Assembly: GCF_029581395.1 (NCBI RefSeq)
Contig: NZ_CP121113.1
Location: 62,001-126,000, forward strand
Direction: 5' to 3'
Length of the DNA: 64,000 nt
DNA from: Roseinatronobacter sp. S2
Lineage (GTDB): Bacteria > Pseudomonadota > Alphaproteobacteria > Rhodobacterales > Rhodobacteraceae
Shown here: one piece after another, positions 30,991 through 45,331 of the stretch
Numbering within the stretch: position 1 is the first letter of the stretch
Layout: each line of letters opens with the position of its first letter
Translations under genes and position numbers: made by a program
Notes under the pieces: model-generated
Database searches by the model: none
What the model saw: only the letters and a program-made list of their open reading frames with translations
Told to the model about the DNA's origin: nothing

Positions 30991-31905
30991 TCATTTGCAA
31001 AGCTGGCGGTCCAATGTGTCAAAGGCCTTCTGGAACACATTGTCATGCACATTGGGGATCAGCGCCAGATCATCTTGCGGGCTTGCCGTCCAGTCTGCGG
31101 TCCACACGGCAAAGGTATGGTCGCGGTCGGTCAGCGGATATAGCTGCGCACCGGCATGATAATTCATCCACGGCATGGGGCTTTTCAAAATACGGTAGCG
31201 AAAGGCATGGTCCTGATCGGACAGGAACGTAAGCTGTTCGTGCAACTGCCCGTCACCAAATATGAAATCCCGCACGCCCGACACCTTGTCGGACCGCACG
31301 CTGTCGATCATGTCCATCTGCGGGATATCTTCGTGCCAGTGTTTCATGCCCGCAAAATCGCGCATCTTTTCCCACACCGCAGGCAACGGCGCGCGAATCA
31401 CGCTGGAGGTGAAAACCTTGGCGGGGCGCAGCCCCTGCCAGCGCGCATCCGCCGTGGCCGGGGCCGGTTCGCGGGCAATAAATTCCGCCAGTGCCGTCAG
31501 TCCGGCGGCAAAAACATCGCGCGAGATCAGCGCGCTGTATGTCCCGCTGTCCTTTGGCGCTTCGTCAAAACTGGCATGCCAGCGCACAAATGTCCGGTCG
31601 CCATTGGTGACAGGGATTAATTCCAGCGTGGCCAGATAATGCGCCACGGGAAAAGCGGGGGTCTCAAAGTTATAGCGCATCCGGTAACGGCTGTCGTCCA
31701 GTTCCAGCAGCCGTTCACGCACGAAACTGCCATCTGCCAGATGAAAGGCGCGGATGCAGCCCACGGTGTCGGCATCGCGCCCGTCCTCGATCATGCTGTC
31801 GCGCACACCGCTGTTCCAGCGTGGCAACCCGTTGAAATCGCGCGCAATGGCCCAGACGGTTTCCACGGGCGCATCGATGATGGTTGTTGCAAGGGCGTGG
31901 GCCAT
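30991..31905 (-). CDS. tandem SRPBCC (START-like) domain protein
   Basis: This 304-residue protein is built from two homologous SRPBCC units. The first (about 1-145) contains IDAPVETVWAIARDFNGLPRWNSG; the second (about 155-300) contains IRAPLPAVWEKMRDFAGMKHWHED. Such domains bind small hydrophobic ligands or act as lyases/cyclases. The start at 31905 has AAGGAG 8 bases upstream; an extended frame to 32070 would run into the preceding gene. It begins 10 bases after the TIM-barrel gene and is the last member of the LIV-type operon, so its ligand may be the imported compound or a product of it. Confidence 0.82.
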   Translation of the reverse strand: MAHALATTIIDAPVETVWAIARDFNGLPRWNSGVRDSMIEDGRDADTVGCIRAFHLADGSFVRERLLELDDSRYRMRYNFETPAFPVAHYLATLELIPVTNGDRTFVRWHASFDEAPKDSGTYSALISRDVFAAGLTALAEFIAREPAPATADARWQGLRPAKVFTSSVIRAPLPAVWEKMRDFAGMKHWHEDIPQMDMIDSVRSDKVSGVRDFIFGDGQLHEQLTFLSDQDHAFRYRILKSPMPWMNYHAGAQLYPLTDRDHTFAVWTADWTASPQDDLALIPNVHDNVFQKAFDTLDRQLCK

Positions 31906-31915
31906 GATCTTCTCC

Positions 31916-32761
31916 TTAGAAGGTAAGCGCCTTGAACGCGCGGGTTGTGTCGCATAGCGCGGATTCTGTCGGCAGCCGTTCCATGGAACTGGCCCCGTAA
32001 AACCCGTGGCATAGCTTCGTTTGGCGCAAAACGTATGCCGCATCCTGCGGTGTGGCAATCGGGCCGCCATGGCAGATGATCAGAATGTCAGGCCGCACGC
32101 GCAGCGCAGCTTCCGCCCATTGGTCAATATCGCGCACGCAATCATCCAGCGTGCGCACGGTTTCCGCGCCGATGGTCCCGCCCGATGTCAGGCCCATATG
32201 CATCACCAGAATATCGGCCCCTGCATTGGCCATGGCCACGGCTTCTTCTGCGGAAAATACATAGGGGGTGGTCAGCAGATCGCGTTCATGGGCCATGCGG
32301 ATCATGTCGACTTCCAGCGCGTAACTCATGCCGGTTTCTTCCAGATTTTGCCGGAACACCCCGTCAATTAGCCCGACTGTGGGAAAATTCTGCACGCCCG
32401 CAAAGCCCAGCGCCTTCAGCCGGTCCAGATGCTGCCCCATCATCACGAAAGGGTCGGTGCCATTCACGCCCGCCAGAACCGGCGTTTCATGCACCACCGG
32501 CAGCACCTCGCGCGCCATGTCCAGCACAATTTCATTGGCATTGCCGTATGCCAGAAGCCCCGCCAGCGACCCGCGCCCCGCCATGCGGTAGCGCCCCGAA
32601 TTGTAGATCACGATCAGATCGATCCCGCCGCTTTCTTCACTTTTGGCGGAAAGCCCCGTGCCCGCCCCACCGCCGATAATCGGAATGCGCCGCTTGGCCA
32701 TATCCTGAAACTTGCGCATCAGCGCGCTGCGGTCGCGGTGGTCGTTCTTGGTCTGGATCAT
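31916..32761 (-). CDS. TIM-barrel signal-transduction / PEP hydrolase-like protein (PF09370 type)
   Basis: This 281-residue protein belongs to the TIM-barrel family annotated as phosphoenolpyruvate hydrolase-like. It shows the N-terminal glycine loop [13 protein letters not shown] (about 29-41), [14 protein letters not shown], the GNANEI turn, [13 protein letters not shown] and a terminal [10 protein letters not shown]. The start overlaps the UPF0261 gene stop as ATGA. In plants this fold is fused behind a UPF0261 domain in the Tm-1 virus-resistance protein, and the bacterial gene pair here mirrors that fusion. The reaction is not known with certainty; PEP or phosphonopyruvate hydrolysis is only a family label. 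Confidence 0.85.
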
Positions 32762-33960
32762 GGGAGCATCCTGAATAATTCAGCGGCCATTGCAGCGGCA
32801 AAGGCCGGATCGTTGATATGCTGCGGCAGTTCGATCAAACGGCGGTTCGCACCGGGTTTGAACGTGTCGCGGATCGTGGTGAACAGCGCGTCATCGGCGG
32901 CGGGGTCATGAAAGGGCATGCCCGGCGCATCCACCGCCGAAACCCCGCCCAGCGGCAAAAACAGCGTAACCGGCCCGTCGCACCGGTTCAGGCGTTCGGT
33001 CAGAAAACGCGCGATCTGCACATTTTCCGCAGGTGTGGTGCGCATCAGGGTGATTTGCGGATTGTGCACCAGCAACTGACGATCGGCAAAGCGGTCCGGC
33101 ACCGTTTCACGGCCCGCGAAATTGACCATATCCACCGCACCCACCGACCCCACCCACGGAATACCCGTGCGCGCGACAACGCCGTAGCGGTCGGCTGAAC
33201 ATGGCATGACCCCACCCACCAGATGGTCGGCAATTTCGGTCGCGGTGACATCCAGCAGCCCTGCAACAAGGCCCGATTCCGCCAGCTTTTCCATCGATGC
33301 GCCACCTGTCCCCGTGGCATGGAACACATAGGGTTCAACCTTGCCCGCCAGTTCAGCGCGCAGATGATCGACGCAAGTTGTGGTGACGCCAAACATTGTC
33401 ACGCCCACACCGGGCAAATCCGCCGCTGCGTCGGGGATTGTGTTTTGCGCCATTCCGGCAGCGGCATGGGCGGCATTGCCGATCACGCGGCGGCTGATTG
33501 CGTTCAACCCCGCCACATCTGTCACCGAATGCACCATGCCCAGATCAGTGGCCCCCACATATTGCGCGACCTGCCCCGATGCGACGGTGGACACCATCAG
33601 CTTGGGCACGCCCACGGGCAGCGCCCGCATGGCCTGCGTGACCAATGCGGTATTGCCAGACCCGCCCAGCCCCAGCACCGCGCCGATATCACCCCGCGAC
33701 AGCAGCCAATGCGTCAGCGCTTCGGCCATGCGGGTGACGGCCAGCCCGCGATCATCAGATCCCAGCACGGCATCTGCGCCGTCAGGGTGGCAGGCGGCAA
33801 TCTCAGCCGCCGGCACATCGGCGGTGCCGGATGCGCCGCGCGTGCTGACATCGACCAGCACCGCCGCGGCACCGGCGGCCCGGACCCTGTCGCAGGCGAA
33901 AGCCAGTTCGGCCTGTTTGGTGTCGCAGGTTCCTATGACATAAACGCGCCTAGTGCCCAT
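32758..33960 (-). CDS. UPF0261 / Tm-1-like ATP-binding protein
   Basis: This 400-residue protein is a UPF0261 (Tm-1-like) family member of normal length. The N-terminal Rossmann-like strand [16 protein letters not shown] is diagnostic; [15 protein letters not shown] (about 97-111), [11 protein letters not shown] and a second-domain [14 protein letters not shown] follow. Family members bind ATP, and the biochemical role in bacteria is undefined. It overlaps livF by 11 bases upstream and the TIM-barrel gene by 4 bases downstream, so it is part of the LIV-type transport operon and probably acts on the imported substrate. Confidence 0.88.
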
Positions 33961-34657
33961 GGCTGACCCCCAGATACCGGTTTTGCATCTCGCGGTCGCT
34001 TGCCAGTTCCGCAGACCCCACGGTTGCCGCGATCCGGCCTGTCACCATGATCGACACCTGATCGGTTACAGATGTCGCCACGCGCAGGTTCTGCTCTATC
34101 AGCAACAGCCCCATGCCTTCGGCGGCGATGGTCTGCAACACTTCGATCAGATGATCGACAATCACCGGCGCCAGCCCTTCGGACGGTTCATCCATGATCA
34201 CAAGGCGCGGGTTCATCAAAAGCGCGCGCGAAATGGCAAGCATCTGCTGCTCGCCGCCCGACAACTGGTCACCGCCATTCCTGCGCCGTTCGGCCAGTCG
34301 CGGAAACGTGTCATAGACACGCTCGATGGTCCAGGGCGGGCTGCCGCGCTGCGCGACCAGAAGCAGGTGTTCATGCACCGAAAGCGATGGAAACATGCGC
34401 CTGCCCTGCGGCACCAGCGCAATGCCCTGTCGGGCTATGCGTCCGGTGTTCAGGCCCAGAACGTCCTGCCCGTCCAGCGTGATACTGCCGGATGCGGGCA
34501 CCATGCCCATCACCGCCGAACACATCGTGGTTTTGCCCATACCGTTGCGCCCGACCACCGACAGCGGCTTGTCTTGCACCGACAGGCTGACACCTTGCAA
34601 GATTGTGGCCTTGCCGAAGCGCACATGCAGATCGCGAATATCCAGATGGCCCGCCAT
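33950..34657 (-). CDS. LIV-type ABC transporter ATP-binding protein (LivF-like)
   Basis: This 235-residue second ATPase belongs to a branched-chain amino-acid family importer. Walker A is VGRNGMGKTT (about residue 36), the signature is LSGGEQQM and Walker B is VIMDEPSEGLAP, with the LivF-typical ending AELASDREMQNRYLGV. The start shares one base with the livG stop (TAATG) and the end overlaps UPF0261 by 11 bases. It works with LivG, LivH and LivM. LIV-type systems also carry amides, urea and aromatic acids, so the substrate is open. Confidence 0.92.
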   Translation of the reverse strand: MAGHLDIRDLHVRFGKATILQGVSLSVQDKPLSVVGRNGMGKTTMCSAVMGMVPASGSITLDGQDVLGLNTGRIARQGIALVPQGRRMFPSLSVHEHLLLVAQRGSPPWTIERVYDTFPRLAERRRNGGDQLSGGEQQMLAISRALLMNPRLVIMDEPSEGLAPVIVDHLIEVLQTIAAEGMGLLLIEQNLRVATSVTDQVSIMVTGRIAATVGSAELASDREMQNRYLGVSHGH

Positions 34658-35430
34658 TAATGCCCTTCCCCCAGATAAATCGCCTGAACAACGGGGTCAT
34701 CGACCACCTTTTCAGGCGTTGAATCCACCACAACCACCCCGTCCTTCATGACGGTCACCTTTTCGGAATTGGCCAGGGCAACATCCATGTCATGCTCGAT
34801 CAAAACCAGGGTCAGATCGCGCGGCAGACCGGCCATAAGCGTGACCAGTTCGGGGCGTTCTGCCGCCGACAGGCCCGCCGCCGGTTCGTCCAGCATCAGC
34901 AGTTTCGGGTCACCCGCCAGCGCCATGCCAATTTCCACCTGCCTGCGCTGCCCGTGCGACACGGCATCAATGCGCGTGTCCAGAATGTGATCCACCCGCA
35001 CCTGTTCGGCCAGCACGGCCACCCGCACCAGATCGGCATGTCCCGGCCCCGCCTTGATCATGGAAAACCTGCCGGACTTGGCCGCGCGGACCGCCAGATA
35101 CAGGTTTTCGCGCACAGACAGCCCGTTGAACAGGGTGGAGCTTTGATAGGTGCGCCCGATCCCCATTCGCGCCCGCCGGTAAGGTTTAAGCTGCGATATA
35201 TCGGCGCCAAAATAAGTGATCTTGCCCGAAGTCGGCGGGTAATCGCCGCAGATTGTATTGAACAACGTGGTCTTTCCTGCACCATTCGGGCCAAGGATCG
35301 CCCGACGCTCTCCCGCGTGAATGGTCAGGGTCACGCCGCTGACCGCGTGCAGCGCGCCAAAGCGGCGGCCAACACCGTCCAGAACCAGCGCGGGCAGATC
35401 AGAAGCTGAAGAAGTTGACAACGTCATCAT
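34657..35430 (-). CDS. LIV-type ABC transporter ATP-binding protein (LivG-like)
   Basis: This 257-residue LivG-type ATPase has Walker A GPNGAGKTT (about residue 39), a variant signature VSHGQRRQ (consensus LSHGEQR in this branch), Walker B LLMLDEPAAGLS, and the C-terminal VVDDPVVQAIYLGEGH ending typical of LivG. It starts 57 bases after the binding-protein stop, across a strong intercistronic stem-loop. It is the partner of the LivF-like protein. Confidence 0.92.
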   Translation of the reverse strand: MMTLSTSSASDLPALVLDGVGRRFGALHAVSGVTLTIHAGERRAILGPNGAGKTTLFNTICGDYPPTSGKITYFGADISQLKPYRRARMGIGRTYQSSTLFNGLSVRENLYLAVRAAKSGRFSMIKAGPGHADLVRVAVLAEQVRVDHILDTRIDAVSHGQRRQVEIGMALAGDPKLLMLDEPAAGLSAAERPELVTLMAGLPRDLTLVLIEHDMDVALANSEKVTVMKDGVVVVDSTPEKVVDDPVVQAIYLGEGH

Positions 35431-35448
35431 ATGTCCTGTCTTGGAATA

Positions 35449-35478
35449 GCCCGCCCCGATGTTGCCAAAGGGGCGGGC
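35449..35478 (-). promoter_or_regulatory. intercistronic stem-loop after the LIV binding-protein gene
   Basis: A 9-bp perfect inverted repeat GCCCGCCCC/GGGGCGGGC with a 12-base loop lies between the binding-protein stop and livG. Such structures usually stabilise the upstream mRNA or cause partial termination, giving more binding protein than ATPase. No T-tract follows on the minus strand. Confidence 0.65.
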
Positions 35479-35487
35479 AAGGCCAGA

Positions 35488-36750
35488 TTACCGTGCTGGC
35501 GGGCAGGAAGGATTATCCCGCGAGGGCGAACCCAGCGCCAGAAACTCTTCGGTTTCCATGCCAAGCGTCTGGCTGACATCCGGCGTGCGCCCGAAAGCTT
35601 CGGTGCGCATTGTGCCGCCATCATTGACGATACGCGTCAGGAAAATGTCCGAAATGGCCTGACGGTTTTCGTCAAGGCGGACATTTGCACCGGTCGGGGC
35701 CGTAAACTCGATCGATGCCAGCGCGTCCTGAAACGCCGCCTGATTGTCGGACAGATCGCCGCCCACCTCTTCCAGCGCCTGAAGCACGGCGATGGTGTTG
35801 GTGTAGTAGTTCACAGCATGGATCGACGGCGAGTCGAACCCGTCGGGCCAGCGTTCGCGGTAATCTGCAACGAATTCCGTCCAGTTGGGGTCATCATTCA
35901 GGTCGGCAATCGGGCCTGCGGCCACCATGCCTTCCATCAGGCGCTGGTGCGGACCGCGTGCCGACAGCAGCGTCTGGTCTGCGGTGATGGACCCGCCAAT
36001 GATGGGCAGATCGCCGCCCACTTCGGCATATTGCGTCAGGAAGGCCAGCGCGTCCGTGCCCCCCTGAATCAGCAGCACCGCGTCGATATCATCAGGGAAT
36101 TGCGCGATGATGGACGAAAAATCGGTGGTGTTCAGCGGCGACCACAGCTTGGTGACTTCGCCACCCAGCTCGCAATATTCATGCATGAAGCCGAACACCT
36201 GCGCATAGGGAAACGCGTAGTCTGCGGCCACAAGGGCCACATGGCGCGACCCCATGTCTTCATAGGCATGCGTGCCCAGACCGGCCATCCATTGGGTGCC
36301 TTCCGTGCTGAAGCGGAAGAAATTCGGCGAAGGGTCCCGCAACGTGGTATCGGCGGCGCCGGATGATCCGTTCACGATTGTCCTGCCGTCCAATGTGCGG
36401 GAATAATCCCGCAGCGCAATCCCTTCAGCGCCCGAAAGCGGGCCGATGATGATGTCCACCTCGTCCTGCTCGATCAGTTTGCGGGCACGGGCCAGCGCCA
36501 CATCCGGCGTTGCGTTGGACGACTCGCGGATCCATTCGATCTGGCGACCGCCAACCGTGTAGTCAATCGCTTCAAACGCCATTTCCATGGCGCGGTAGGC
36601 ATCCTGCCCGCCTGTGGCAAACGGCCCTTCCAGTGTGGTGATCGAACCAATGCGAATTGGCTGTTCCTGCGCCATGGCCCCGGATAGCGCGAAAACCGCC
36701 GCCACCGTGCCCATTGCCCAGGCTGTTGTATGTCTGCGCGAAACTGACAT
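35488..36750 (-). CDS. LIV-type ABC transporter periplasmic binding protein
   Basis: This 420-residue precursor has a signal peptide (MSVSRRHTT n-region, hydrophobic core, cleavage at AMA-QEQP near residue 28). The mature protein opens with IRIGSITTLEGPFATGG, the periplasmic-binding-protein-like I fold of LivJ/K-type proteins. ELGGEVTKLWSPLNTTDFSSIIAQ and SIHAVNYYTNTIAVLQAL are further family segments. The ATG at 36750 has GGAGGAG 8 bases upstream. It sits between livM and livG. Its length and motifs suggest the amide/urea/aromatic-type branch rather than classical LivK, but the ligand is undetermined. Confidence 0.9.
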   Translation of the reverse strand: MSVSRRHTTAWAMGTVAAVFALSGAMAQEQPIRIGSITTLEGPFATGGQDAYRAMEMAFEAIDYTVGGRQIEWIRESSNATPDVALARARKLIEQDEVDIIIGPLSGAEGIALRDYSRTLDGRTIVNGSSGAADTTLRDPSPNFFRFSTEGTQWMAGLGTHAYEDMGSRHVALVAADYAFPYAQVFGFMHEYCELGGEVTKLWSPLNTTDFSSIIAQFPDDIDAVLLIQGGTDALAFLTQYAEVGGDLPIIGGSITADQTLLSARGPHQRLMEGMVAAGPIADLNDDPNWTEFVADYRERWPDGFDSPSIHAVNYYTNTIAVLQALEEVGGDLSDNQAAFQDALASIEFTAPTGANVRLDENRQAISDIFLTRIVNDGGTMRTEAFGRTPDVSQTLGMETEEFLALGSPSRDNPSCPPAR

Positions 36751-36771
36751 GTATCTTCTCCTCCTTGTTGT

Positions 36772-36793
36772 GCCGGGTTTCCTCCTCCCCGGC
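36772..36793 (-). promoter_or_regulatory. small hairpin with a Shine-Dalgarno-like loop before the binding-protein gene
   Basis: GCCGGG/CCCGGC (6 bp) encloses a loop reading GGAGGAAA on the minus strand, about 22 bases upstream of the start codon and just before the true GGAGGAG site. It may be a standby ribosome site or a processing structure. Confidence 0.4.
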
Positions 36794-36859
36794 GGTAAGT
36801 TCTTTGACCCTGTGATCAGCACGTTCTGCGCGGTCGGGTCCAATTGCCGCGCGTGTGGT

Positions 36860-37882
36860 TCAGCGCGCCTCCTCGCTGCCCGTATTGCTGCCCGTAATCT
36901 TGTTGTGGTCTTTGCGCCCAAGGGCTGCGGCCAGTCTGCCGCCCATCCCCCAGACGCCATCTGGCGACAACAGGACGATGATCAGAAAGACCATGCCAAT
37001 CAGTGTGTTGAACCTGTCATGCCCGATGATTGACGATGCGAATGTGTCCATAAGCGCGAAGATCAGCGCGCCGATAAACGCCCCCAGCGGGTGACCCAGC
37101 CCGCCGATCACAGCCATGATCAGCACGCCCACCGTGGCCCATAGCCCGATCGAACTGGGGGTGATGCCAATGTTGTAGAATGTGATCAGCACACCGCCCC
37201 AGCCCGCGATAAACCCCGCCAGCGCAAAGGCGGCAATGCGGTGCAGCCCGACATGAAAGCCGATTGCAGCCGTGCGCCGGTTGGAATCGCGGATGGCCTG
37301 CAACACCAGCCCGAACGGCGTGCGCACCACATACAGAACCAGCAGATACAACAGCGCGGCGACAATCAGCGCGGTATAGTAAAACACCATCGGCGTGCGG
37401 AAGGGCCTGCCGAATATCTCGGGGCCGACAACGTTGCGAATGCCTTCATAGCCGTTGAACCAGGTGATGTTGGACTGCGCAAACAGGCTGAAGCCGACAG
37501 CCAGCGCAAGCGTGATCATCAGCAAGTAAATCTCGCGCGTGTTGACCGCGATCAGCCCCACCACAGCGCCTGCAACAGTTGCCGCCAGCACCGCAAGCGG
37601 GATGGCCAGCGCATAGGGCAAGGCCACATCGCCCAGCGGAATCGCATTCGGTGCCATCATGGCAACGGCATAACCCGCCACACCCGCGACCATGGTTTGC
37701 GCCAGCGACACGAACCCGCCGTAATGCGCCAGAAAGGTCAGTGACAAGGCGACAATTCCGTAAACCAGCGCGCGGCCGAATATATTGACCAGCCAGAAGT
37801 TGGGCAAAAACAGCGGCAGTGACAGCAATATCGCAAGTCCGATCCCCGTCAGCGCCCAGCGGCGCGTGCTCATGATGATCAT
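36860..37882 (-). CDS. LIV-type ABC transporter permease (LivM-like)
   Basis: This 340-residue inner-membrane permease has about nine spans and the LivM elements LTFLAHYGGFVSLAQTMVAGVAGY, the coupling loop VLQAIRDSNRRTAAIGFHV, and ATVGVLIMAVIGGLGHPLGAFIGA. The ATG at 37882 is chosen because it overlaps the livH stop as ATGA with GAGGAAG upstream; the frame extends 35 codons further inside livH. The C-terminal tail is hydrophilic. It forms the pore with LivH. Confidence 0.9.
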   Translation of the reverse strand: MIIMSTRRWALTGIGLAILLSLPLFLPNFWLVNIFGRALVYGIVALSLTFLAHYGGFVSLAQTMVAGVAGYAVAMMAPNAIPLGDVALPYALAIPLAVLAATVAGAVVGLIAVNTREIYLLMITLALAVGFSLFAQSNITWFNGYEGIRNVVGPEIFGRPFRTPMVFYYTALIVAALLYLLVLYVVRTPFGLVLQAIRDSNRRTAAIGFHVGLHRIAAFALAGFIAGWGGVLITFYNIGITPSSIGLWATVGVLIMAVIGGLGHPLGAFIGALIFALMDTFASSIIGHDRFNTLIGMVFLIIVLLSPDGVWGMGGRLAAALGRKDHNKITGSNTGSEEAR

Positions 37883-38772
37883 GTTGGCTTCCTCCCCAAC
37901 AGACCCTGCGGCCAGACGGCCAGCACCGATGCCATGATCACGAAGGTCAGGATCACCGAATATGTGGGAAACAGCACCTGCCCCCATTGCTCGGCCAGAC
38001 CGATCAGCAGCGCGCCCAGTGCCGTGCCGCCAATGGACCCCATGCCGCCCACAATCACCACCACCAACGACATCAGCAGGAACCGGACATCAACGCCCAG
38101 CGCCATCGGCTGTGCAGTCGCGCCAATCACGCCCCCCAACCCCGCCAGCGCGGCACCAAGGGCAAAAACCGTGGCCGCCACCAGCGGCACATTGATCCCG
38201 CAGGCCGCCAGCATCTGGCGGTCATCAACCCCCGCACGCACGACAATGCCCAGCTTGGTCTTGTTCAGCAGCAGCCACAACCCGACACCCACCGCAATCG
38301 CCAACCCGACCTGAAACAACCTGAACACAGGATAGCGCCCGATGCCCGGAACCTGCACAGGCCCAAACAGCATATCAGGCGCGAAGAACTGGAAAGGATT
38401 GCCACCAAAGGTCGCAAGCAATTGATCTGCAATGATAATTGACAAGCCGATTGTCACAAGTGCCTGCCGCAGTTCCTGCCCCTGCATCCACCCCAGAAAG
38501 GCCACCTGCATGATCAGCCCCACCAGCGCGGCGGCGGCAATCCCCGCCAGAACGCCAATCAGCCACGCTTGCGAGGCCCACGCACTTGAGGCATAAAGCG
38601 GGTCATACACTGCAAACCCCACATATGCGCCCACCATGTAAAGCGAACCATGTGCCATGTTCACAGTCCGCATCAGCCCGAATATCAACGAGAATCCGCA
38701 GGCGACGATAAAGTATAGCGATGCAAGCGTCAGCCCGTTCAGGGTGACGGTCAGGATGAACTGCAAGGACAC
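37879..38772 (-). CDS. LIV-type ABC transporter permease (LivH-like)
   Basis: This 297-residue permease has eight predicted spans. It opens with LNGLTLASLYFIVACGFSLIFGLMRTVNMAHGSLYMVGAY-type sequence, the LivH hallmark, and has the loop GVDDRQMLAACGINV and the SLVVVIVGGMGSIGGTALGALLIG segment. It is the first gene of the eight-gene LIV/UPF0261/TIM-barrel/SRPBCC operon. Its promoter must lie in the 137 bases shared with the divergent second TIM-barrel gene. Confidence 0.92.
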   Translation of the reverse strand: MSLQFILTVTLNGLTLASLYFIVACGFSLIFGLMRTVNMAHGSLYMVGAYVGFAVYDPLYASSAWASQAWLIGVLAGIAAAALVGLIMQVAFLGWMQGQELRQALVTIGLSIIIADQLLATFGGNPFQFFAPDMLFGPVQVPGIGRYPVFRLFQVGLAIAVGVGLWLLLNKTKLGIVVRAGVDDRQMLAACGINVPLVAATVFALGAALAGLGGVIGATAQPMALGVDVRFLLMSLVVVIVGGMGSIGGTALGALLIGLAEQWGQVLFPTYSVILTFVIMASVLAVWPQGLLGRKPT

Positions 38773-38909
38773 GTTTTCCTCCTCGTCTGGCGCTGGCAGC
38801 CATGGTGGCTCCTCCCTCAGCGCGGCGACGATCTGTTGGTCTTGTCAGGGGATTTTGCAGGGCCGGTGGACAAGTTGCCACAGCCATTTTGGCGGATAAT
38901 TGGGTAAAA

Positions 38910-39620
38910 ATGGGTAACTCTTTGAACACAGCACATAGGGGGGCCTTGCCTGATCTTGCCGTCGGCGCGGCACTCCCCATGGTTGAGCAGGGGCGCGAAT
39001 CGTGCCTGCCGCATATCTTCGCACCATGGCTGGCCGCCTTGCCTGTCGCGCAACGTGATCTGCTGGCGTTGCTGCCGGTGCTGGATGTAAACGGCGCAAT
39101 GTTCACGGCCCTGAACGGCGCGGAACCGGACACGCGCGCGGCCACGGCCCGACAGGGTGTCATCGCCGCGTTGTTATGTGTTGATCCGTTTTTGCGGGTG
39201 CGCGATGTGGTGGCCCTTCTGCGCGCGGCCGGAATATCCGGGGTGGCCAATTTTCCGACGGTTCAGCTTATCGATGGCGTGGCAGCGCTTGGGTTTGACA
39301 GCGCCGATCTTGGCCTGCGCCGCGAAGCCCGCATGCTGGCGCGCTTTGCCGATGACGGGCTGGCAGTCACGGGCTTTGCCACCACAGCGGAAAATGGCCA
39401 GCGGCTGCTGGATCATGGCGCGGCGGAACTGGTTGTGCATCCCGGCCTGCCGTCAACCGATTGGCGCAACCGCGCGGTTGCCGCGCGCGGCGCCGCAGAT
39501 ACGCTTGCGGCGCTGCGTGCGCAGTGCACTGTGCCACTGCGCCTTTTCTGCCCCGACAGCTATGGGGCGGAACTGGATGACGCGCGCGCACTGGCCGACG
39601 GGCTGGTGCGATATGCCTGA
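38910..39620 (+). CDS. diverged TIM-barrel (PF09370-like) protein
   Basis: This roughly 236-residue protein is homologous to the operon's TIM-barrel protein through GVANFPTVQLIDGVAALGFD (about 108-127), GLRREARMLARFADDGLAVTGF and LLDHGAAELVVHPGL. It lacks the N-terminal glycine loop, the [10 protein letters not shown] segment, the GNAN turn and the C-terminal GASS ending that the other two copies have. The start is uncertain; 38910 was chosen as the first ATG after the livH promoter region, and 38802 is also open. It is divergent from livH and followed by the fused regulator. It may be a non-catalytic partner or a specialised enzyme. Confidence 0.65.
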   Translation: MGNSLNTAHRGALPDLAVGAALPMVEQGRESCLPHIFAPWLAALPVAQRDLLALLPVLDVNGAMFTALNGAEPDTRAATARQGVIAALLCVDPFLRVRDVVALLRAAGISGVANFPTVQLIDGVAALGFDSADLGLRREARMLARFADDGLAVTGFATTAENGQRLLDHGAAELVVHPGLPSTDWRNRAVAARGAADTLAALRAQCTVPLRLFCPDSYGAELDDARALADGLVRYA

Positions 39621-39759
39621 CGCCAAAGCGCACCCTTGATCAACCACACGACAAGGATGCATCTTCGCATCTGGGGTTTTCGACTGTTCCACTGCCGCCA
39701 GATGGATATGCTGCATATCAAAGTGCCAGACCCGCAGAAAGGCCGGACCCGCCAAAGTT

Positions 39760-41496
39760 ATGGAAAACACGCTGAACCAGATGTTGCACAAAAAATCGCC
39801 CGGCAGTGGAACGCTGCTGATCGGCGGGGCGATTGGTGTTGGCATGACTGCGGAAGCGGCGGTGCGTGGCGGCGCCGATTTCCTGCTGGCGCTGAATGCG
39901 GGGCGCTACAGGGTCATGGGGGCCGCGTCGCTTGCGGCGCTGCTGCCGCTTGGCAATGCCAACACATTCACCGACCAGTTTGCACGCCGTGAAATACTTG
40001 ACCGTGTTTCCGTGCCGGTGCTGTTCGGCGCGTCATGTTTCGACCCGTCGACCAGCCCCGAAAAACTGGTCCGCCAAACCTGCGATGTCGGGTATCAGGG
40101 CATCGCGAATTTCCCGTCTTCGATTCATTTTGACGGCCGGTTCCGCCAGCTGCTGGAAGAAGCCGACCTTGGCTTTGCCCGCGAGGCCCGCATGCTGGCG
40201 CAGGCGCGCAGGGCCGGACTGCTGACATTTGGCTACGCCAAAACCCGCGCCGAGATTTCGATGCTGATAGATGCAGGGGTCGACATGATCTGCCTGAATT
40301 TCGGCTGGAATGCAGGCGGTGTGCAAGCGGTAGCACAAAGTTTCACCATCGCAGAAGCCGCTGATCGGGCGCGGCGCATTTTCGCGTCCATCCGCAGCCG
40401 TGCGCCCCAGACGCTGTGCTTTGTCGAAGGCGGGCCAATCATCAACCCTGACGACATGTTTCGCGTCTGCGACGAGGCCAGCGCCGATGGCTATGTCGGC
40501 GGCTCCACGCTGGACCGCGTGCCGCTGGAAATTTCGGTGACGGAACGCACGTCAGCCTTCAAGGCGTTCGGGTTGCTGAAACAGGCCAACACCGCGCAGA
40601 CGCGCGAGTTGGGACGCGCGGCACGGATCGCGGGAATCGTGGGCCAGTCGGAATTCGTGCTGGCCGTGCTGGAACAGGTCACACGGCTGGCAGGCACGCG
40701 CATTCCCGCGCTGATCTGCGGCGAGCCGGGCCTTGGACGTGGTGCATTGGCCCGCGCGCTGCATCCGCTGTCTGAACGCAGTGGTCCGCTGATGACCGTG
40801 CGCGCGAAAAACCTGCAAGCCGCGCCCGAAGCGCAGTTGTTTGGCGAAGCGCCGCGCCGTCAGGGGATGCTGGCAAAACCCGATGCAACCGTGGTCGTCG
40901 AAAATGCCGAAGTTCTGCCACACGCCGTGCAGCGCCGTCTGGTTGACTGGCTGGAACAGGCCATGCCGGACACTGGCCCCCATGCAGGGCCGGATCAGGC
41001 CGCGCGGCTGGTTCTGGTGTGCGACGCCGACCCCGGCGGCGCAACGGCACTGATCCCCGAACTGGCGCAATGCCTTCAGGCGGGCCGCATTGAAATTCCA
41101 CCCTTGCGCGAACGCCCCGAAGATGTGCCTGCGCTTGCACGGCACAGGCTGGCAATACTGGGAGGCGGGCAACAGATTTCGGCCGATGGGTATCGTTTGT
41201 TGCTGGCGCATGGCTGGCCCGGCAACATTCCCGAATTGCGGTCGGTCATTGATCGCGCAGCGCTTCAAAGTGCAGGAAAAACAATCGGATCAGGCGCGCT
41301 TTCGGGGGCGATTGGCCACAGCCCATCGGGCGACACCCCAGATGAAGACCCTGCCCTGCACCCGCTAAACGAACGAGACTGGCTGCTGGATGCCCTGCGC
41401 CGCAACCGTTTCCGGCGGGGCGATACAGCCGCCTATCTGGGCGTATCGCGCAAGACATTATACAACAAAATGCGCCGCATGGGCCTGCTGGAATAG
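39760..41496 (+). CDS. TIM-barrel sensor fused to a degenerate sigma54-activator-like AAA+ domain and Fis HTH
   Basis: This 578-residue regulator has three parts. Residues 1-275 are a PF09370-type TIM barrel (LIGGAIGVGM, LLALNAGRYRVMG, PLGNANTF, GIANFPSSIHFDG). About 295-510 is an AAA+ domain resembling sigma54 enhancer-binding proteins, and about 540-578 is a Fis-type helix-turn-helix (DTAAYLGVSRKTLYNKMRRMG). The AAA+ part is degraded: Walker A reads GEPGLGRG (Arg327 for Lys), GAFTGA is missing after LFG, Walker B is VVVENAE instead of LDE, the arginine-finger region is gone and sensor II reads WPGNIPEL. It probably controls the divergent LIV operon by ligand sensing without sigma54 activation, which is inference. 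Confidence 0.85.
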   Translation: MENTLNQMLHKKSPGSGTLLIGGAIGVGMTAEAAVRGGADFLLALNAGRYRVMGAASLAALLPLGNANTFTDQFARREILDRVSVPVLFGASCFDPSTSPEKLVRQTCDVGYQGIANFPSSIHFDGRFRQLLEEADLGFAREARMLAQARRAGLLTFGYAKTRAEISMLIDAGVDMICLNFGWNAGGVQAVAQSFTIAEAADRARRIFASIRSRAPQTLCFVEGGPIINPDDMFRVCDEASADGYVGGSTLDRVPLEISVTERTSAFKAFGLLKQANTAQTRELGRAARIAGIVGQSEFVLAVLEQVTRLAGTRIPALICGEPGLGRGALARALHPLSERSGPLMTVRAKNLQAAPEAQLFGEAPRRQGMLAKPDATVVVENAEVLPHAVQRRLVDWLEQAMPDTGPHAGPDQAARLVLVCDADPGGATALIPELAQCLQAGRIEIPPLRERPEDVPALARHRLAILGGGQQISADGYRLLLAHGWPGNIPELRSVIDRAALQSAGKTIGSGALSGAIGHSPSGDTPDEDPALHPLNERDWLLDALRRNRFRRGDTAAYLGVSRKTLYNKMRRMGLLE

Positions 41497-41498
41497 CG

Positions 41499-42593
41499 CT
41501 ATGCCTGCGCCAGCGTCGGGCGGCGATCCGGTTTTCGCACGGGCCGGTCAGCGCCAGCACCGTCAAGGATGACCTTTTCGACATCAGGCGCACTCATGGC
41601 GCGCATCAGTGCAGAATAATCGGGCTGAAAGCAAACTTCGCTGCCTGCCACCAACGCCGCACCGCGCGTTTGCAGCAGCAGATGGTCACTGCTGGACCCC
41701 AGCCGTGTCATTCCGACCGGCATTGAAAGCCCGCCGATATCAGTGTCCTGATCGCCAAGTGCCAGCAGGGATTTGCTTTCGCCAGTGCCGGACACAGGCA
41801 GCCGCAGCACAGACGGCTGCGGCAAATCAGCGGCGGATTCAATGATTTCCGCCACCAGAACGAACGCATCGGTAGACAGGCCGTCTATCGGGGCGCGGGT
41901 CACCGGATCACGGCCCAGCAAAATGGCCTCTCCCAAACGCAGGTCGTTGACCCGTGTGCGTAGACCCGTGCGGTAAAGCCCCGGCAGGCTGGCGGAATTG
42001 CCGCCCGATATGGTCCGCAGCGTGATCCCGAAATCGCCCTCAATCGCGGCGGCAAGCGCCGAAAGTTTGCCCATCTCGGACGGGTGCGGGGCGCCCCCGC
42101 TCAGGCAGGCGAAATTCGCGCCGATGCCTGCCAGCACAACACCATCAAGGCCCATGACATGGCGCGCCAGACCCGCCAGTTCATCCGGCTGGACGCCTTC
42201 GCGCCCGTCGCCCATCTCGACCATCAGAACAACCTGATGCACCACCCCCGCGCGCGCAGCAGATTGCGCAAGCGCCGTCACGACATCCGCATCGGTATTC
42301 AGGCTGGTGCCGCAGGCCCGCACGACCCTGTCGGTCTGGCTGCGCATGGGCGTGCGGATCAGGACAACCGGCGCGTCAATGCCCGCAGCCCGCATCCGTT
42401 CCACATTGGAAACCCGCGCATCCGCCAGACGCTGCACGCCACCGTCAAGCATGGCTTGCGCGATTTCAGGATGACCGCACACGCCTTTGGTCACGCCTGT
42501 CACCGCAATCCCGTGCTGCGCAAGGCGGTCGACAAGCTGCCGCGCATTCCGCCTGATCTTGACCAGATCAACCTCGATGCGTGGGGCGGTCAC
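41499..42593 (-). CDS. fold-type III PLP racemase, alanine/ornithine racemase family
   Basis: This 364-residue protein has an alanine-racemase-like N-terminal barrel. The PLP lysine is Lys36 in GVTKGVCG; LMVEMGDGREGVQ, GIGANFACLSG and TISGGNSASLPG follow, and then a C-terminal beta domain. These match the alanine/ornithine racemase (Orr-like) branch rather than Alr. The start overlaps the DUF1611 gene stop as ATGA, so the two are co-translated. It would interconvert D and L amino acids in the cytosol; substrate preference is unknown. It is convergent with the fused regulator, with two bases between stops. Confidence 0.85.
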   Translation of the reverse strand: MTAPRIEVDLVKIRRNARQLVDRLAQHGIAVTGVTKGVCGHPEIAQAMLDGGVQRLADARVSNVERMRAAGIDAPVVLIRTPMRSQTDRVVRACGTSLNTDADVVTALAQSAARAGVVHQVVLMVEMGDGREGVQPDELAGLARHVMGLDGVVLAGIGANFACLSGGAPHPSEMGKLSALAAAIEGDFGITLRTISGGNSASLPGLYRTGLRTRVNDLRLGEAILLGRDPVTRAPIDGLSTDAFVLVAEIIESAADLPQPSVLRLPVSGTGESKSLLALGDQDTDIGGLSMPVGMTRLGSSSDHLLLQTRGAALVAGSEVCFQPDYSALMRAMSAPDVEKVILDGAGADRPVRKPDRRPTLAQA

Positions 42594-43795
42594 TGTGCGG
42601 CCAGATCGCGCGATCCGTTCAGGGCAGGATAGGCAGACAGAACCATGTCCAACAGCTCGCGCGCAGGTCGGGAAAGAGCATCCGTTGCCGGCAGGTCGGA
42701 CGCGAGCGCCATGGACCCGATGGCCGCATCAATGTCATGGGGTGACATATTTTCGTGATTCAGGGTCAGCCCGATGACCTTGGTGGGGGCAAATGCCTCG
42801 ATCAACTGGATTTCGGCAATCGGGTCGGGCATGGGCATTTGTGGAAAATCACAGCGGTGCGCGCGGGCGGGCGCGTGTTGCAGGATAACCGCATGGGGCT
42901 GGCTGCCGCGCAGAATGAACGCCGATGTGCAAAAGGCCGGATGACTAAGCGCGCCCTGCCCCTCGATGACAATGACATCCGGCGCTTCTGCGTTGAAGGC
43001 CGCAACAACTTCGCCTTCCAGCTCGCCGCAGCAAAACTGTGGTGGCACCGCATCCATGGCAATGCCGTAGCGCGCGCCCTGCATCAGGCCGGTCTGGCCT
43101 GTCCCTACCAGAATGGTGCGAATGCCCGCTTCATTTAACGCATGGGTCAGAACCGTCGCGGTTGTCCGCTTGCCAATCGCACAATCCGTCCCCAGAACCG
43201 CAATCCGCAGGGCGCCAACATTCGCCACGCTGCCATCGAACAGGCGCATGTCCTTGCCGGGCTTCGGTTTGCGGATATCACGAATGCGAACCTGACTGGT
43301 TTTGGCCGCATGTGCGATTTCGGGATCATCACCAAGATATTCGTGCAACCCGCTGACAATGTTCATCCCGTGCCCGATGGCCTTCAGGATCACGGCGCGA
43401 TCTTTGGGCGACAGCTTGCCACTGGACGGGGCCACACCATAGATGAACGTGTCGGGTATGACGGTTTCTTGCAGTATCGCAGCATCCAGATCACCGACCA
43501 CAGGAATGCCGTTTGGCACTGCATCCAGAACCTGGCCGCTGTCGCGTCCGGCGCAACTGCTGTCAACGACCGATGCGATGCGAAACGTCTGGGAGTGGCG
43601 CACAAGACCATTGGCCGTTTTCCCGTCAACCTGCCCGAAATTCCCTTCGCAATAGACAATCGCGCACAGCAGGCCGGACGCGCGCAGGTCCGGTTCGACC
43701 ACATTCGCATGTAGGGATGCCTGTGTTGCTTGCGGGCGCGAAACGGGTTTGCTGGCAAGGCTAAGGAAGGCGCGGCCGGTGTTGTCGTCAGTCAT
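42590..43795 (-). CDS. DUF1611 family protein (DgcN-like N-acyltransferase candidate)
   Basis: This 401-residue two-domain DUF1611 protein has an N-terminal Rossmann domain (AIVYCEGNFGQVDGKTANGLVR, about 44-65) and a C-terminal P-loop domain with VLGTDCAIGKRTTAT (about 204-218), VGTGQTGLMQGARYG, and VIVIEGQGALSHPAF. A family member, DgcN, has been reported as a D-glutamate N-acetyltransferase in marine bacteria. Here the partner is an Orr-like racemase instead of the enolase-type DgcA. The gene leads a two-gene operon divergent from a TRAP importer. The specific substrate is an inference. Confidence 0.82.
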   Translation of the reverse strand: MTDDNTGRAFLSLASKPVSRPQATQASLHANVVEPDLRASGLLCAIVYCEGNFGQVDGKTANGLVRHSQTFRIASVVDSSCAGRDSGQVLDAVPNGIPVVGDLDAAILQETVIPDTFIYGVAPSSGKLSPKDRAVILKAIGHGMNIVSGLHEYLGDDPEIAHAAKTSQVRIRDIRKPKPGKDMRLFDGSVANVGALRIAVLGTDCAIGKRTTATVLTHALNEAGIRTILVGTGQTGLMQGARYGIAMDAVPPQFCCGELEGEVVAAFNAEAPDVIVIEGQGALSHPAFCTSAFILRGSQPHAVILQHAPARAHRCDFPQMPMPDPIAEIQLIEAFAPTKVIGLTLNHENMSPHDIDAAIGSMALASDLPATDALSRPARELLDMVLSAYPALNGSRDLAAQ

Positions 43796-44341
43796 TGGAA
43801 TATCCTTTGACGGGGAAAGCGCCGCCTCGCTGAATGTATTTCCGTCCGGGGCGCACGCAAAAGCAGCTCGCGCGTCCGGAAAGATCCGAAGCGATCAGGC
43901 AGGGTTAAAGCTGCAAAATCATGTGTCGCAGTCCGACACTGTTCCGGCAGGCCTGACGCTGCGCAGATGCGCAGTCGACGCTTTGCAGGAAAATAAAGTG
44001 ATGGAGTCGCCCCCTTAACCAGCACGGCAAGGGCCTCCCGTTAGGGATGATGTAACCCTCATGGGCAGTCATATCAATGGAACAGGTCATTAAACTGCGC
44101 GCGCCAGTCACTTCAGGACGGCCCGGATCATACCCGCCCGCCCCCACACAACGAGTCAGGCTTGATCCCCGCGCGGAAAAAAGGCAATGCTACGCCCAAG
44201 CGCGAAAGTCTGCGGAGGAGGGGGGGGCGGAGCGGGGCGATACACGGGACAACACGCATATCGTCAGGCACTGCCAGCGCCCTGAACGGCGCGCTTTTGC
44301 CACCACGGACACGCTTGAAGATTTCAACAGGGAGGACACTC
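43796..44341. other. 546-base divergent control region between DUF1611 and dctP
   Basis: There is no supported gene. It contains two short palindromes (listed separately), low-complexity purine runs near 44215-44235 and the dctP ribosome-binding site GGGAGGA. Its length suggests dual promoters with regulator sites for the racemase/DUF1611 and TRAP operons. Confidence 0.5.
43923..43974. promoter_or_regulatory. two adjacent palindromes in the divergent control region
   Basis: GTGTCG-N5-CGACAC occupies 43923-43939 and CTGCGC-N4-GCGCAG occupies 43959-43974. Both are perfect 6-bp arm palindromes about 36 bases apart centre to centre. They are candidate operator sites for a dimeric regulator; which one is unknown. 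Confidence 0.45.
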
Positions 44342-45331
44342 ATGAAACCCACTATGATCACCTTGGCCGCAACATTTGCGATGGTCAGCACAACGGCGGC
44401 CCTGGCAGATTTTGCCGATATCGATCCGATCAACCTGCGCCTTGCCCATGTCGTGAACGAGCAAGACGCCTTTCATGTCTCGGCCACACAATTCAAGGAA
44501 ATCGTCGAGGCCCGCACCGATGGCAAAGTAACAGTAGAGCTGTTTCCGAATGCCAGCCTTGGGGATGAACGCACGCTGCTGGAAGGCATGCAGATCGGCT
44601 CGGTGGATATGGGCGTTATCACCAATGGCCCTGTTGCCAACTTTCTGGAGGATATGGCCGTTTTTGAACTGCCCTTCCTGTTCCCGTCACCCGAAGCTGC
44701 ATATGATGTGCTGGACGGCGAAATCGGTCAGGAACTTCTGGACCGGCTGCAAGAAGTCAACCTGAAGGGGCTGGCCTATTCCGAACGCGGGTTCAGAAAC
44801 CTGACCAACAGCCAACGCGAAGTCCGCAGCCCGCAAGACATTGACGGGTTGCGCATTCGCGTGATGGAAAACCCGGTCTATACCGACACATTCCGCGAAC
44901 TGGGGGCAAACGCCATCCCGATGGCGTGGACCGAAGCACTGACCGCCATGCAGCAAGGCACGATTGACGGTCAGGAAAATCCGGTCGGCGTGATCCATTC
45001 GTTCAAGCTGAATGAAACCCAGATGCACATGACCATGACGCGCCACACCTATGCCCCAGCGGTTGTGGTGATGGGCCAGCCGACATGGAACACCCTGCCC
45101 GAAGCCGTGCAGGACGTTGTTGTCGAGGCCGCGATTGAAGCCGGTGCAGCCGCCCGCGCATTCAATGCTGAAATGGAATTGTCCCAGCTGGAAGAACTGC
45201 GCGCCGCAGGAATGTCGATTATTGATGATGCCGATCTGGTGGCCTTTCAGGACGCCATCATGCCCGTCTATGAACGCTATGGCGAAGCGTTCGGCGATTA
45301 TCTGACCCGCATTCGTGCAGCGATCGAATAA
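44342..45331 (+). CDS. TRAP transporter solute-binding protein (DctP family)
   Basis: This 329-residue precursor has a signal peptide ending ALA (about residue 22), then DPINLRLAHVVNEQDAFH, the DctP-family opening. Also visible are ASLGDERTLLEGMQIGSVDMG and GLRIRVMENPVYTDTFRELGANAIPM, which holds the conserved carboxylate-binding arginine, and TIDGQENPV. The start at 44342 has GGGAGGA 8 bases upstream; the frame is open 60 codons further without a signal peptide. It captures an organic acid or amino-acid-like anion for the DctQM membrane proteins. Confidence 0.93.
   Translation: MKPTMITLAATFAMVSTTAALADFADIDPINLRLAHVVNEQDAFHVSATQFKEIVEARTDGKVTVELFPNASLGDERTLLEGMQIGSVDMGVITNGPVANFLEDMAVFELPFLFPSPEAAYDVLDGEIGQELLDRLQEVNLKGLAYSERGFRNLTNSQREVRSPQDIDGLRIRVMENPVYTDTFRELGANAIPMAWTEALTAMQQGTIDGQENPVGVIHSFKLNETQMHMTMTRHTYAPAVVVMGQPTWNTLPEAVQDVVVEAAIEAGAAARAFNAEMELSQLEELRAAGMSIIDDADLVAFQDAIMPVYERYGEAFGDYLTRIRAAIE

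What the first reader, a model, noticed from the sequence alone, without database searches (positions are those of the whole stretch)
30991..41496. LIV importer operon coupled to a Tm-1/UPF0261 + TIM-barrel pair and controlled by a regulator built from the same TIM barrel
Seen directly: livH-livM-binding protein-livG-livF-UPF0261-TIM barrel-SRPBCC run on one strand with overlaps of 1-11 bases at five junctions. Divergently sit a second TIM-barrel protein and a TIM barrel-AAA-Fis fusion. Known: UPF0261 and this TIM-barrel family (PF09370) are fused in plant Tm-1 and have no settled bacterial reaction. Inference: this is a catabolic or detoxification pathway for an amide/amino-acid-like compound in which the regulator senses ligand with a copy of the enzyme's own fold. 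Three related barrels in 10 kb, one enzyme-like, one sensor and one diverged, look like an under-described self-sensing system.
Basis: partly seen in the sequence, partly recalled or inferred. Interest (0 to 1): 0.82.

Follow-up and report, generated by a model that had tools for sequence, protein, structure and literature searches.

The report
Enzyme-fold sensor controlling its own importer
A bacterial nutrient-import operon is paired with a regulator that appears to have turned a copy of the operon's own enzyme into a sensor, and a matching DNA switch site was found in front of the import genes, which opens a poorly understood enzyme family to direct test.

Summary
The operon and its two divergent barrel genes are real and form a conserved module: an enzyme-like PF09370 barrel, a diverged short barrel ('bar2') and a PF09370-AAA-Fis regulator. 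In 386 alphaproteobacterial genomes bar2 was found in exactly the nine with the regulator. All 40 genomes over the PF09370 cut-off also have UPF0261. The importer varies (LIV or sugar type), so an amide/amino-acid substrate is unsupported.

New here: a direct repeat, TTGGGTAA-N3-TGGGTAA, at 38900-38917, 127 bp upstream of livH. At 2 mismatches or fewer it occurs in 24 of 26 regulator loci and 0 of 39 loci with no intact regulator on the fetched stretch. The one regulator locus without a site at 3 mismatches has the one recognition helix with a changed Arg-Lys core.

The regulator lacks the sigma-54 contact motif and its genome has no detected sigma-54. Its barrel keeps the shared pocket, but three conserved enzyme positions (His, Thr, His) are Asn, Asn, Glu, as expected of an enzyme turned sensor.

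The domain architecture was already recorded. Operator, sigma-54 independence and strict bar2 pairing appear new. Ligand and reaction stay unknown.

The parts
30991..31905 (-). double SRPBCC (Polyketide_cyc2 x2) protein, third slot after the barrel; a cupin takes this slot in some relatives
   Evidence: Pfam; relatives
31916..32761 (-). PF09370 enzyme-like TIM barrel ('barE'), close homologue of solved 2P10 (Mll9387)
   Evidence: Pfam 425 bits; 2P10 417 bits
32758..33960 (-). UPF0261 (Tm-1 N-terminal-like)
   Evidence: Pfam N and C domains; Tm-1 structures 3wrw/3wry and 9mpy
33950..34657 (-). livF-type ABC ATPase; in one frame with UPF0261 in 17 of 59 loci with UPF0261
   Evidence: Pfam; fusion count
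34657..35430 (-). livG-type ABC ATPase
   Evidence: Pfam
35488..36750 (-). LIV/urea-type periplasmic binding protein
   Evidence: Pfam; best solved relative 4zpj, 148 bits
36860..37882 (-). livM-type permease
   Evidence: Pfam
37879..38772 (-). livH-type permease, first gene of the operon
   Evidence: Pfam
38900..38917 (.). candidate operator TTGGGTAAAAATGGGTAA (direct repeat, 10-bp period), 127 bp upstream of livH
   Evidence: only exact match in the 4.4-Mb genome; in 24 of 26 regulator loci and 0 of 39 others at 2 mismatches or fewer
38802..39620 (+). bar2: diverged short PF09370-like barrel, proposed partner of the regulator (true start probably at or after the site 38900-38917)
   Evidence: 63.7 bits; AF2 model pLDDT 83.9, eight strands listed; same nine genomes as the regulator
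39760..41496 (+). regulator: PF09370 sensor barrel (about 14-269), degenerate AAA (293-525), Fis-type HTH (538-573)
   Evidence: Pfam; motif checks

Best explanation
This is a self-contained uptake-and-processing module with its own sensor. The LIV-type importer brings in a small compound, and UPF0261 and the barE barrel act on it as a pair. The divergent regulator is a sigma-54-independent Fis-type protein. Its N-terminal barrel descends from the enzyme family and has been re-specialised to bind the compound or a close metabolite. It binds the direct repeat TTACCCA-N3-TTACCCAA about 80-130 bp upstream of the importer and UPF0261/barE operons and most likely activates them with housekeeping RNA polymerase. 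bar2 is probably a non-catalytic partner barrel of the regulator. Shown by sequence: module conservation, pocket replacement, lack of GAFTGA, no sigma-54 found in this genome, co-occurrence of site and regulator. Inferred: site binding, ligand binding, sign of regulation, bar2 partnership. Ligand and reaction are not known.
For: Regulator and bar2 found in the same 9 of 386 genomes. bar2 goes with all 26 regulators: 23 by its own best match, L109 by place and length although barE scored higher (42 against 33 bits), L071 and L072 by profile; mostly adjacent, at most about 6 kb away (L033). Site at 2 mismatches or fewer: 24 of 26 regulator loci against 0 of 39 loci (704 kb) with no intact regulator on the fetched stretch. 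Genome-wide, 13 of 15 regulator genomes have sites at 1 mismatch or fewer, all in the cluster or within about 8 kb of it; 1 of 15 regulator-less genomes has one. In seven plasmid records 12 of 13 sites lie 80-118 bp before a start codon, and 7 of 7 records have one before an importer's binding-protein gene. Recognition helix SRKTL(Y/F)NK in 25 of 26; the exception, L074 (STRTLYNK), is the only unit without a site at 3 mismatches. GAFTGA absent in 26 of 26; no sigma-54 match in the window genome. Enzymes H188 and H231 in 64 of 64, T192 in 61 of 64; regulators N180, E223, N184 in 59 of 59 with N117, E142, R49, D40, S249 kept. Enzyme, sensor and bar2 each one clade.
Against: No experiment shows binding or regulation. 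The repeat was defined from the window and then sought in relatives, several of them close kin. In the more diverse 26 regulators the three replacements stand at 23, 21 and 25 of 26, and the three changed positions may mean a different ligand. A sigma-70 promoter scan of 38700-39800 found none. L118 has no UPF0261/barE within 30 kb. The L108 site has 3 mismatches, and two non-regulator loci have one site each at 3. The reversed control pattern also gave more sites in regulator loci (9 against 1 at 2 mismatches). Five of the 13 plasmid sites also have bar2 starting on the other side, so their polarity is ambiguous. One search scored at most 7 candidates per genome. bar2 branches are long.
Confidence: 0.62

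Rival explanations
1. The regulator's barrel is an oligomerisation or protein-contact domain: it senses no small molecule itself but docks barE, UPF0261 or bar2, whose occupancy it reads, as DhaR is reported to be bound by its kinase.
For: The regulator's best NCBIfam match is DhaR; the title of the DhaR/kinase paper was seen in a reference list, the paper itself is not held. bar2 tracks the regulator in 9 of 9 genomes. 2P10 is listed with six chains.
Against: Pocket positions of the sensor barrel are fixed in 59 of 59 aligned proteins, more than a docking surface should need. The DhaR score (88) is far below that model's cut-off (551).
Confidence: 0.25
2. The repeat is the site of another regulator in the same neighbourhoods, and the PF09370-AAA-Fis protein controls something else.
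For: Direct repeats are unusual for Fis-type HTH dimers (recalled). A GntR gene lies between bar2 and livH in L073 and GntR genes lie in the L108, L114 and L117 stretches.
Against: 0 of 39 loci with no intact PF09370 regulator carry it at 2 mismatches, including those with GntR or TetR genes; the one regulator with a changed helix core has no site; no GntR was listed in L109, L115, L116 or L118.
Confidence: 0.12
3. The regulator is a conventional sigma-54 activator, as some public records say.
For: Labels 'sigma-54-dependent Fis family'; Pfam Sigma54_activat match at 30.8 bits, over its cut-off of 20.2.
Against: No GAFTGA in 26 of 26; in 120 further proteins the nearest stretch has 2 mismatches, in 7 of them; no sigma-54 match in G000, G012, G018 or G021.
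Confidence: 0.02

Closest known systems
PF09370 (TIM-barrel signal transduction / PEP_hydrolase) and UPF0261, fused in plant Tm-1
   Same: Same two families; their co-evolution across bacteria, archaea and fungi is published (PMC5028733, passages read)
   Different: The passages read say nothing of a dedicated regulator, a bar2 partner or an operator; 'sigma' occurs 0 times
DhaR/TyrR/HupR class of GAFTGA-less Fis regulators
   Same: AAA plus Fis domains without GAFTGA, sigma-70 dependent (PMC3162934, passages read); best NCBIfam match DhaR
   Different: N-terminal PF09370 barrel as sensor; candidate operator is a direct repeat with 10-bp period
Regulators whose sensor is a re-used enzyme fold (general class, recalled)
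   Same: Enzyme-family domain with altered active-site residues fused to a DNA-binding part
   Different: Here enzyme, sensor and a third diverged copy sit side by side and travel together
Urea and LIV ABC importers
   Same: Domain set of an HAAT-type importer
   Different: Scores below every urea and LIV equivalog cut-off shown; ATPase in one frame with UPF0261 in 17 loci

Membership tests
Sigma-54 enhancer-binding proteins | GAFTGA loop | tested here: not met
   absent in 26 of 26; in 120 further proteins no stretch closer than 2 mismatches
Sigma-54 enhancer-binding proteins | sigma-54 in the genome | tested here: not met
   PF04552 no match in G000; of 12 other regulator genomes 3 have none and 9 have one
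Sigma-54 enhancer-binding proteins | Walker A lysine and Walker B acidic pair | tested here: not met
   window reads GEPGLGRG and VVVENAE; Walker A R in 43, K in 16 of 59
GAFTGA-less Fis regulators (DhaR/TyrR class) | AAA plus Fis HTH, no GAFTGA | tested here: met
GAFTGA-less Fis regulators (DhaR/TyrR class) | acts with sigma-70 | not testable with these tools
   promoter scan found no sigma-70 match, uninformative
PF09370 | score over curated cut-off 33.8 | tested here: met
   425 (barE), 240 (regulator), 63.7 (bar2) bits
PF09370 enzyme-type barrel (applied to regulator) | H188 and H231 as in 64 of 64 enzyme barrels | tested here: not met
   N180 and E223 in 59 of 59
LIV branched-chain amino acid or urea importer | equivalog cut-off of the subunits | tested here: not met
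   all below cut-off in the rows shown
UPF0261 | both Pfam domains | tested here: met
   202 and 285 bits

The most novel reading that the evidence does not exclude
The three barrels work as a mixed-oligomer switch: the regulator's sensor barrel assembles with bar2 and perhaps with barE, so that transcription reads the occupancy of the enzyme's own active site through a direct-repeat operator. I know of no such scheme for a Fis-type regulator other than the DhaR/kinase case (recalled).
Probability: 0.25. Interest if true: 0.78.

Novelty: new variant of a known kind. Interest (0 to 1): 0.6.

Why it matters
UPF0261/PF09370 proteins are widespread, are fused in the plant virus-resistance protein Tm-1, and have no assigned reaction in what I read. 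An operator and a sensor barrel turn that question into tractable experiments: find what recruits or releases the regulator and the substrate family follows. The case also corrects a misleading 'sigma-54-dependent' label and would be a clean example of an enzyme fold converted to a sensor beside its parent.

Tried and rejected
Amino-acid or urea importer identity: not supported, subunits below equivalog cut-offs; solved relatives of the binding protein give no ligand. Substrate from neighbours: some fused-type operons carry flotillin, SRPBCC pairs (one fused to zinc alcohol dehydrogenase), molybdo-hydroxylase subunits, fumarylacetoacetate-type hydrolase and amidohydrolase (10 proteins from 5 loci), rhizobial ones ribokinase, SDR, HAD, Gfo/Idh and cupin; no single substrate emerges. 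Sigma-54 promoter: none seen by eye in the upstream regions, no formal test; sigma-70 scan empty. Sites elsewhere in the window genome: two further matches with 2 mismatches, fewer than the reversed control gave (6), so background. The conserved 'WVKMG' of bar2 was at first read as protein conservation; it is the repeat read in frame. In L074 an ATGG repeat of 10-bp period was seen by eye in the printed sequence (the script's own repeat test did not report it), unproven.

Literature: 'UPF0261', PF09370/PF06792, 'TIM-barrel signal transduction', COG5564/COG5441, Fis plus TIM-barrel, and the operator letters (lists capped at the rows shown in 85 and 93) gave no description of this regulator or site; only open-licence PMC papers are searched. 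Passages were read in PMC5028733, PMC8963296, PMC2364660, PMC6867892, PMC6643234 and PMC3162934; all other papers were seen as listings.

Limits of the counts: one search used a profile built from 20 bar2 proteins, among them those of eight of the nine genomes it found, so it tests absence elsewhere more than presence there; searches scored at most 6 and 7 candidates per genome. The 39 non-regulator loci include L086 (a contig that ends inside the operon, regulator side not seen), L085 (its genome has the regulator elsewhere) and L121/L122 (genome with a broken regulator); L078, second contig of a regulator genome, was in neither list. One search took 15 regulator genomes; fragmented G020 was left out. 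Two short enzyme barrels were dropped. The 59 regulators were chosen from 120 listed of 238.
Full report
What is there. The window (Rhodobacteraceae by its nearest named relatives Roseinatronobacter, Natronohydrobacter and Pararhodobacter) holds, on the minus strand, livH-livM-binding protein-livG-livF-UPF0261-PF09370 barrel-double SRPBCC, and divergently a short PF09370-like barrel and a PF09370-AAA-Fis regulator. The enzyme-like barrel matches solved 2P10 (Mll9387) at 417 bits; UPF0261 matches tomato Tm-1 structures at 313 bits.

Conservation. In 386 alphaproteobacterial genomes 40 have a PF09370 match over cut-off, and all 40 are among the 52 with UPF0261; two weaker PF09370 genomes (G050, G311) are not. 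Nine carry the regulator (long frames, AAA part confirmed). A bar2 profile scored at least 169 bits in exactly these nine and at most 86 bits elsewhere, the lower hits falling on enzyme or regulator barrels (the G379 match is flagged with one stop). Over fetched loci 26 intact regulators were aligned, and bar2 goes with each: 23 by its own best match, L109 by place and length, L071 and L072 by profile. In G020 the cluster is split over two contigs (L082/L083). In L121 the regulator is broken and no bar2 or site was found. The importer differs: LIV type in the window's genus and several other unnamed families, CUT1 sugar type in NGR234, Phyllobacterium, Bradyrhizobium and Qingshengfaniella plasmids. 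In 17 of 59 loci with UPF0261 the livF ATPase and UPF0261 are one reading frame, which ties transport and enzyme together.

Regulator. GAFTGA is absent in all 26; among 120 further proteins the closest stretch has 2 mismatches, in 7 of them. The Walker A lysine is arginine in 43 of 59. The window genome (listed as 100% complete) has no PF04552 match, while 4 of 14 controls ring, E. coli among them; of 12 other regulator genomes 9 do have sigma-54, so its absence is not general. Published work places DhaR, TyrR and HupR in a GAFTGA-less, sigma-70-dependent class (PMC3162934, passages).

Sensor barrel. At three places in motifs that recall TIM-barrel strand ends (inferred from sequence, no structure compared) the enzymes have H188 and H231 (64 of 64) and T192 (61 of 64); the regulators of alignment A2 have N180, E223 and N184 (59 of 59), with the rest of the conserved site retained. 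In the more diverse 26 the replacements stand at 23, 21 and 25 of 26. bar2 keeps the equivalents of N125, P127 and E150 (26, 27 and 27 of 27 rows, two of them pieces of one gene) but loses the first and last parts of the site. Its AF2 model has pLDDT 83.9, is weak over about the first 45 residues and lists eight strands. A quick tree puts enzyme, regulator barrel and bar2 each on one side of a branch (SH-aLRT 91, 95, 99; long branches flagged).

Operator. The repeat TTGGGTAAAAATGGGTAA lies between livH and bar2. With the middle three bases free it has at most 1 mismatch in 20 of 26 regulator units (27 sites in 564 kb), at most 2 in 24 of 26 (35 sites) and at most 3 in 25 of 26 (43 sites); in 39 loci with no intact regulator on the fetched stretch (704 kb) there are 0, 0 and 2 sites (L082 and L083 counted as one unit). 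The reversed pattern gave 1, 9 and 21 sites in regulator loci against 0, 1 and 9 in the others; it shares letters with the true site, but part of the excess may be local composition. Genome-wide, the window genome has one exact match, this one. Thirteen of 15 regulator genomes have matches with at most 1 mismatch, all in the cluster or within about 8 kb of it; G396 has two 2-mismatch sites in the cluster and G036 (L074) none there; 1 of 15 regulator-less genomes has one. In seven plasmid records, 13 sites were found at up to 4 mismatches in 18. Read with the polarity seen at livH, 12 lie 80-118 bp and one 304 bp before an annotated start; each record has one before an importer's binding-protein gene and three have one before UPF0261; five of the 13 also have bar2 on the other side (and the tables). 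The recognition helix reads SRKTLYNK in 24 of 26, SRKTLFNK in L116 and STRTLYNK in L074, the unit without a site. In 120 further proteins the core RKTLY stands in all 117 that reach the helix, after S, A or G; their operators were not examined.

Reading. The simplest account is a self-regulated uptake module whose regulator senses with a converted copy of the enzyme and acts without sigma-54 through the repeat. Whether it activates or represses, and what bar2 does, is inference. Ligand and reaction remain open. Already known: UPF0261/PF09370 co-evolution (PMC5028733; also a fungal co-profile pair COG5441/COG5564 in PMC8963296) and the regulator architecture as an annotation ('predicted TIM-barrel enzyme/transcriptional regulator with AAA-type ATPase domain').

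Noticed in passing
window 41499-43795: An alanine-racemase-N protein and a DUF1611 protein overlap by 4 bases right after the regulator on the other strand, next to a TRAP binding protein (44162-45331); kept in close relative L076, not seen by the window-protein search in L079 or L080.
   Followed up: partly
L080:13085-15642: In G021 the UPF0261 gene is split by about 1 kb of other sequence.
   Followed up: no
L121:4808-5937: Broken PF09370 regulator frame (stops inside) with neither bar2 nor operator found, beside an intact UPF0261-barrel pair.
   Followed up: partly
L096, L085, L088, L104: Operons with the LivF-UPF0261 frame carry a flotillin-like gene right after the barrel (Pfam-checked in L096 only; the others by similar first residues); L085 also has molybdo-hydroxylase subunits and a CoxE-like VWA protein.
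   Followed up: partly
L069:5341-6855: SRPBCC domain fused to a zinc alcohol dehydrogenase.
   Followed up: no
L094:7613-10899: A PF09370 barrel flanked on both sides by UPF0261 genes.
   Followed up: no
G000, G012, G018, G021: No sigma-54 DNA-binding domain found in these genomes of the genus, whereas G031 of the same genus has a lower-scoring one.
   Followed up: partly
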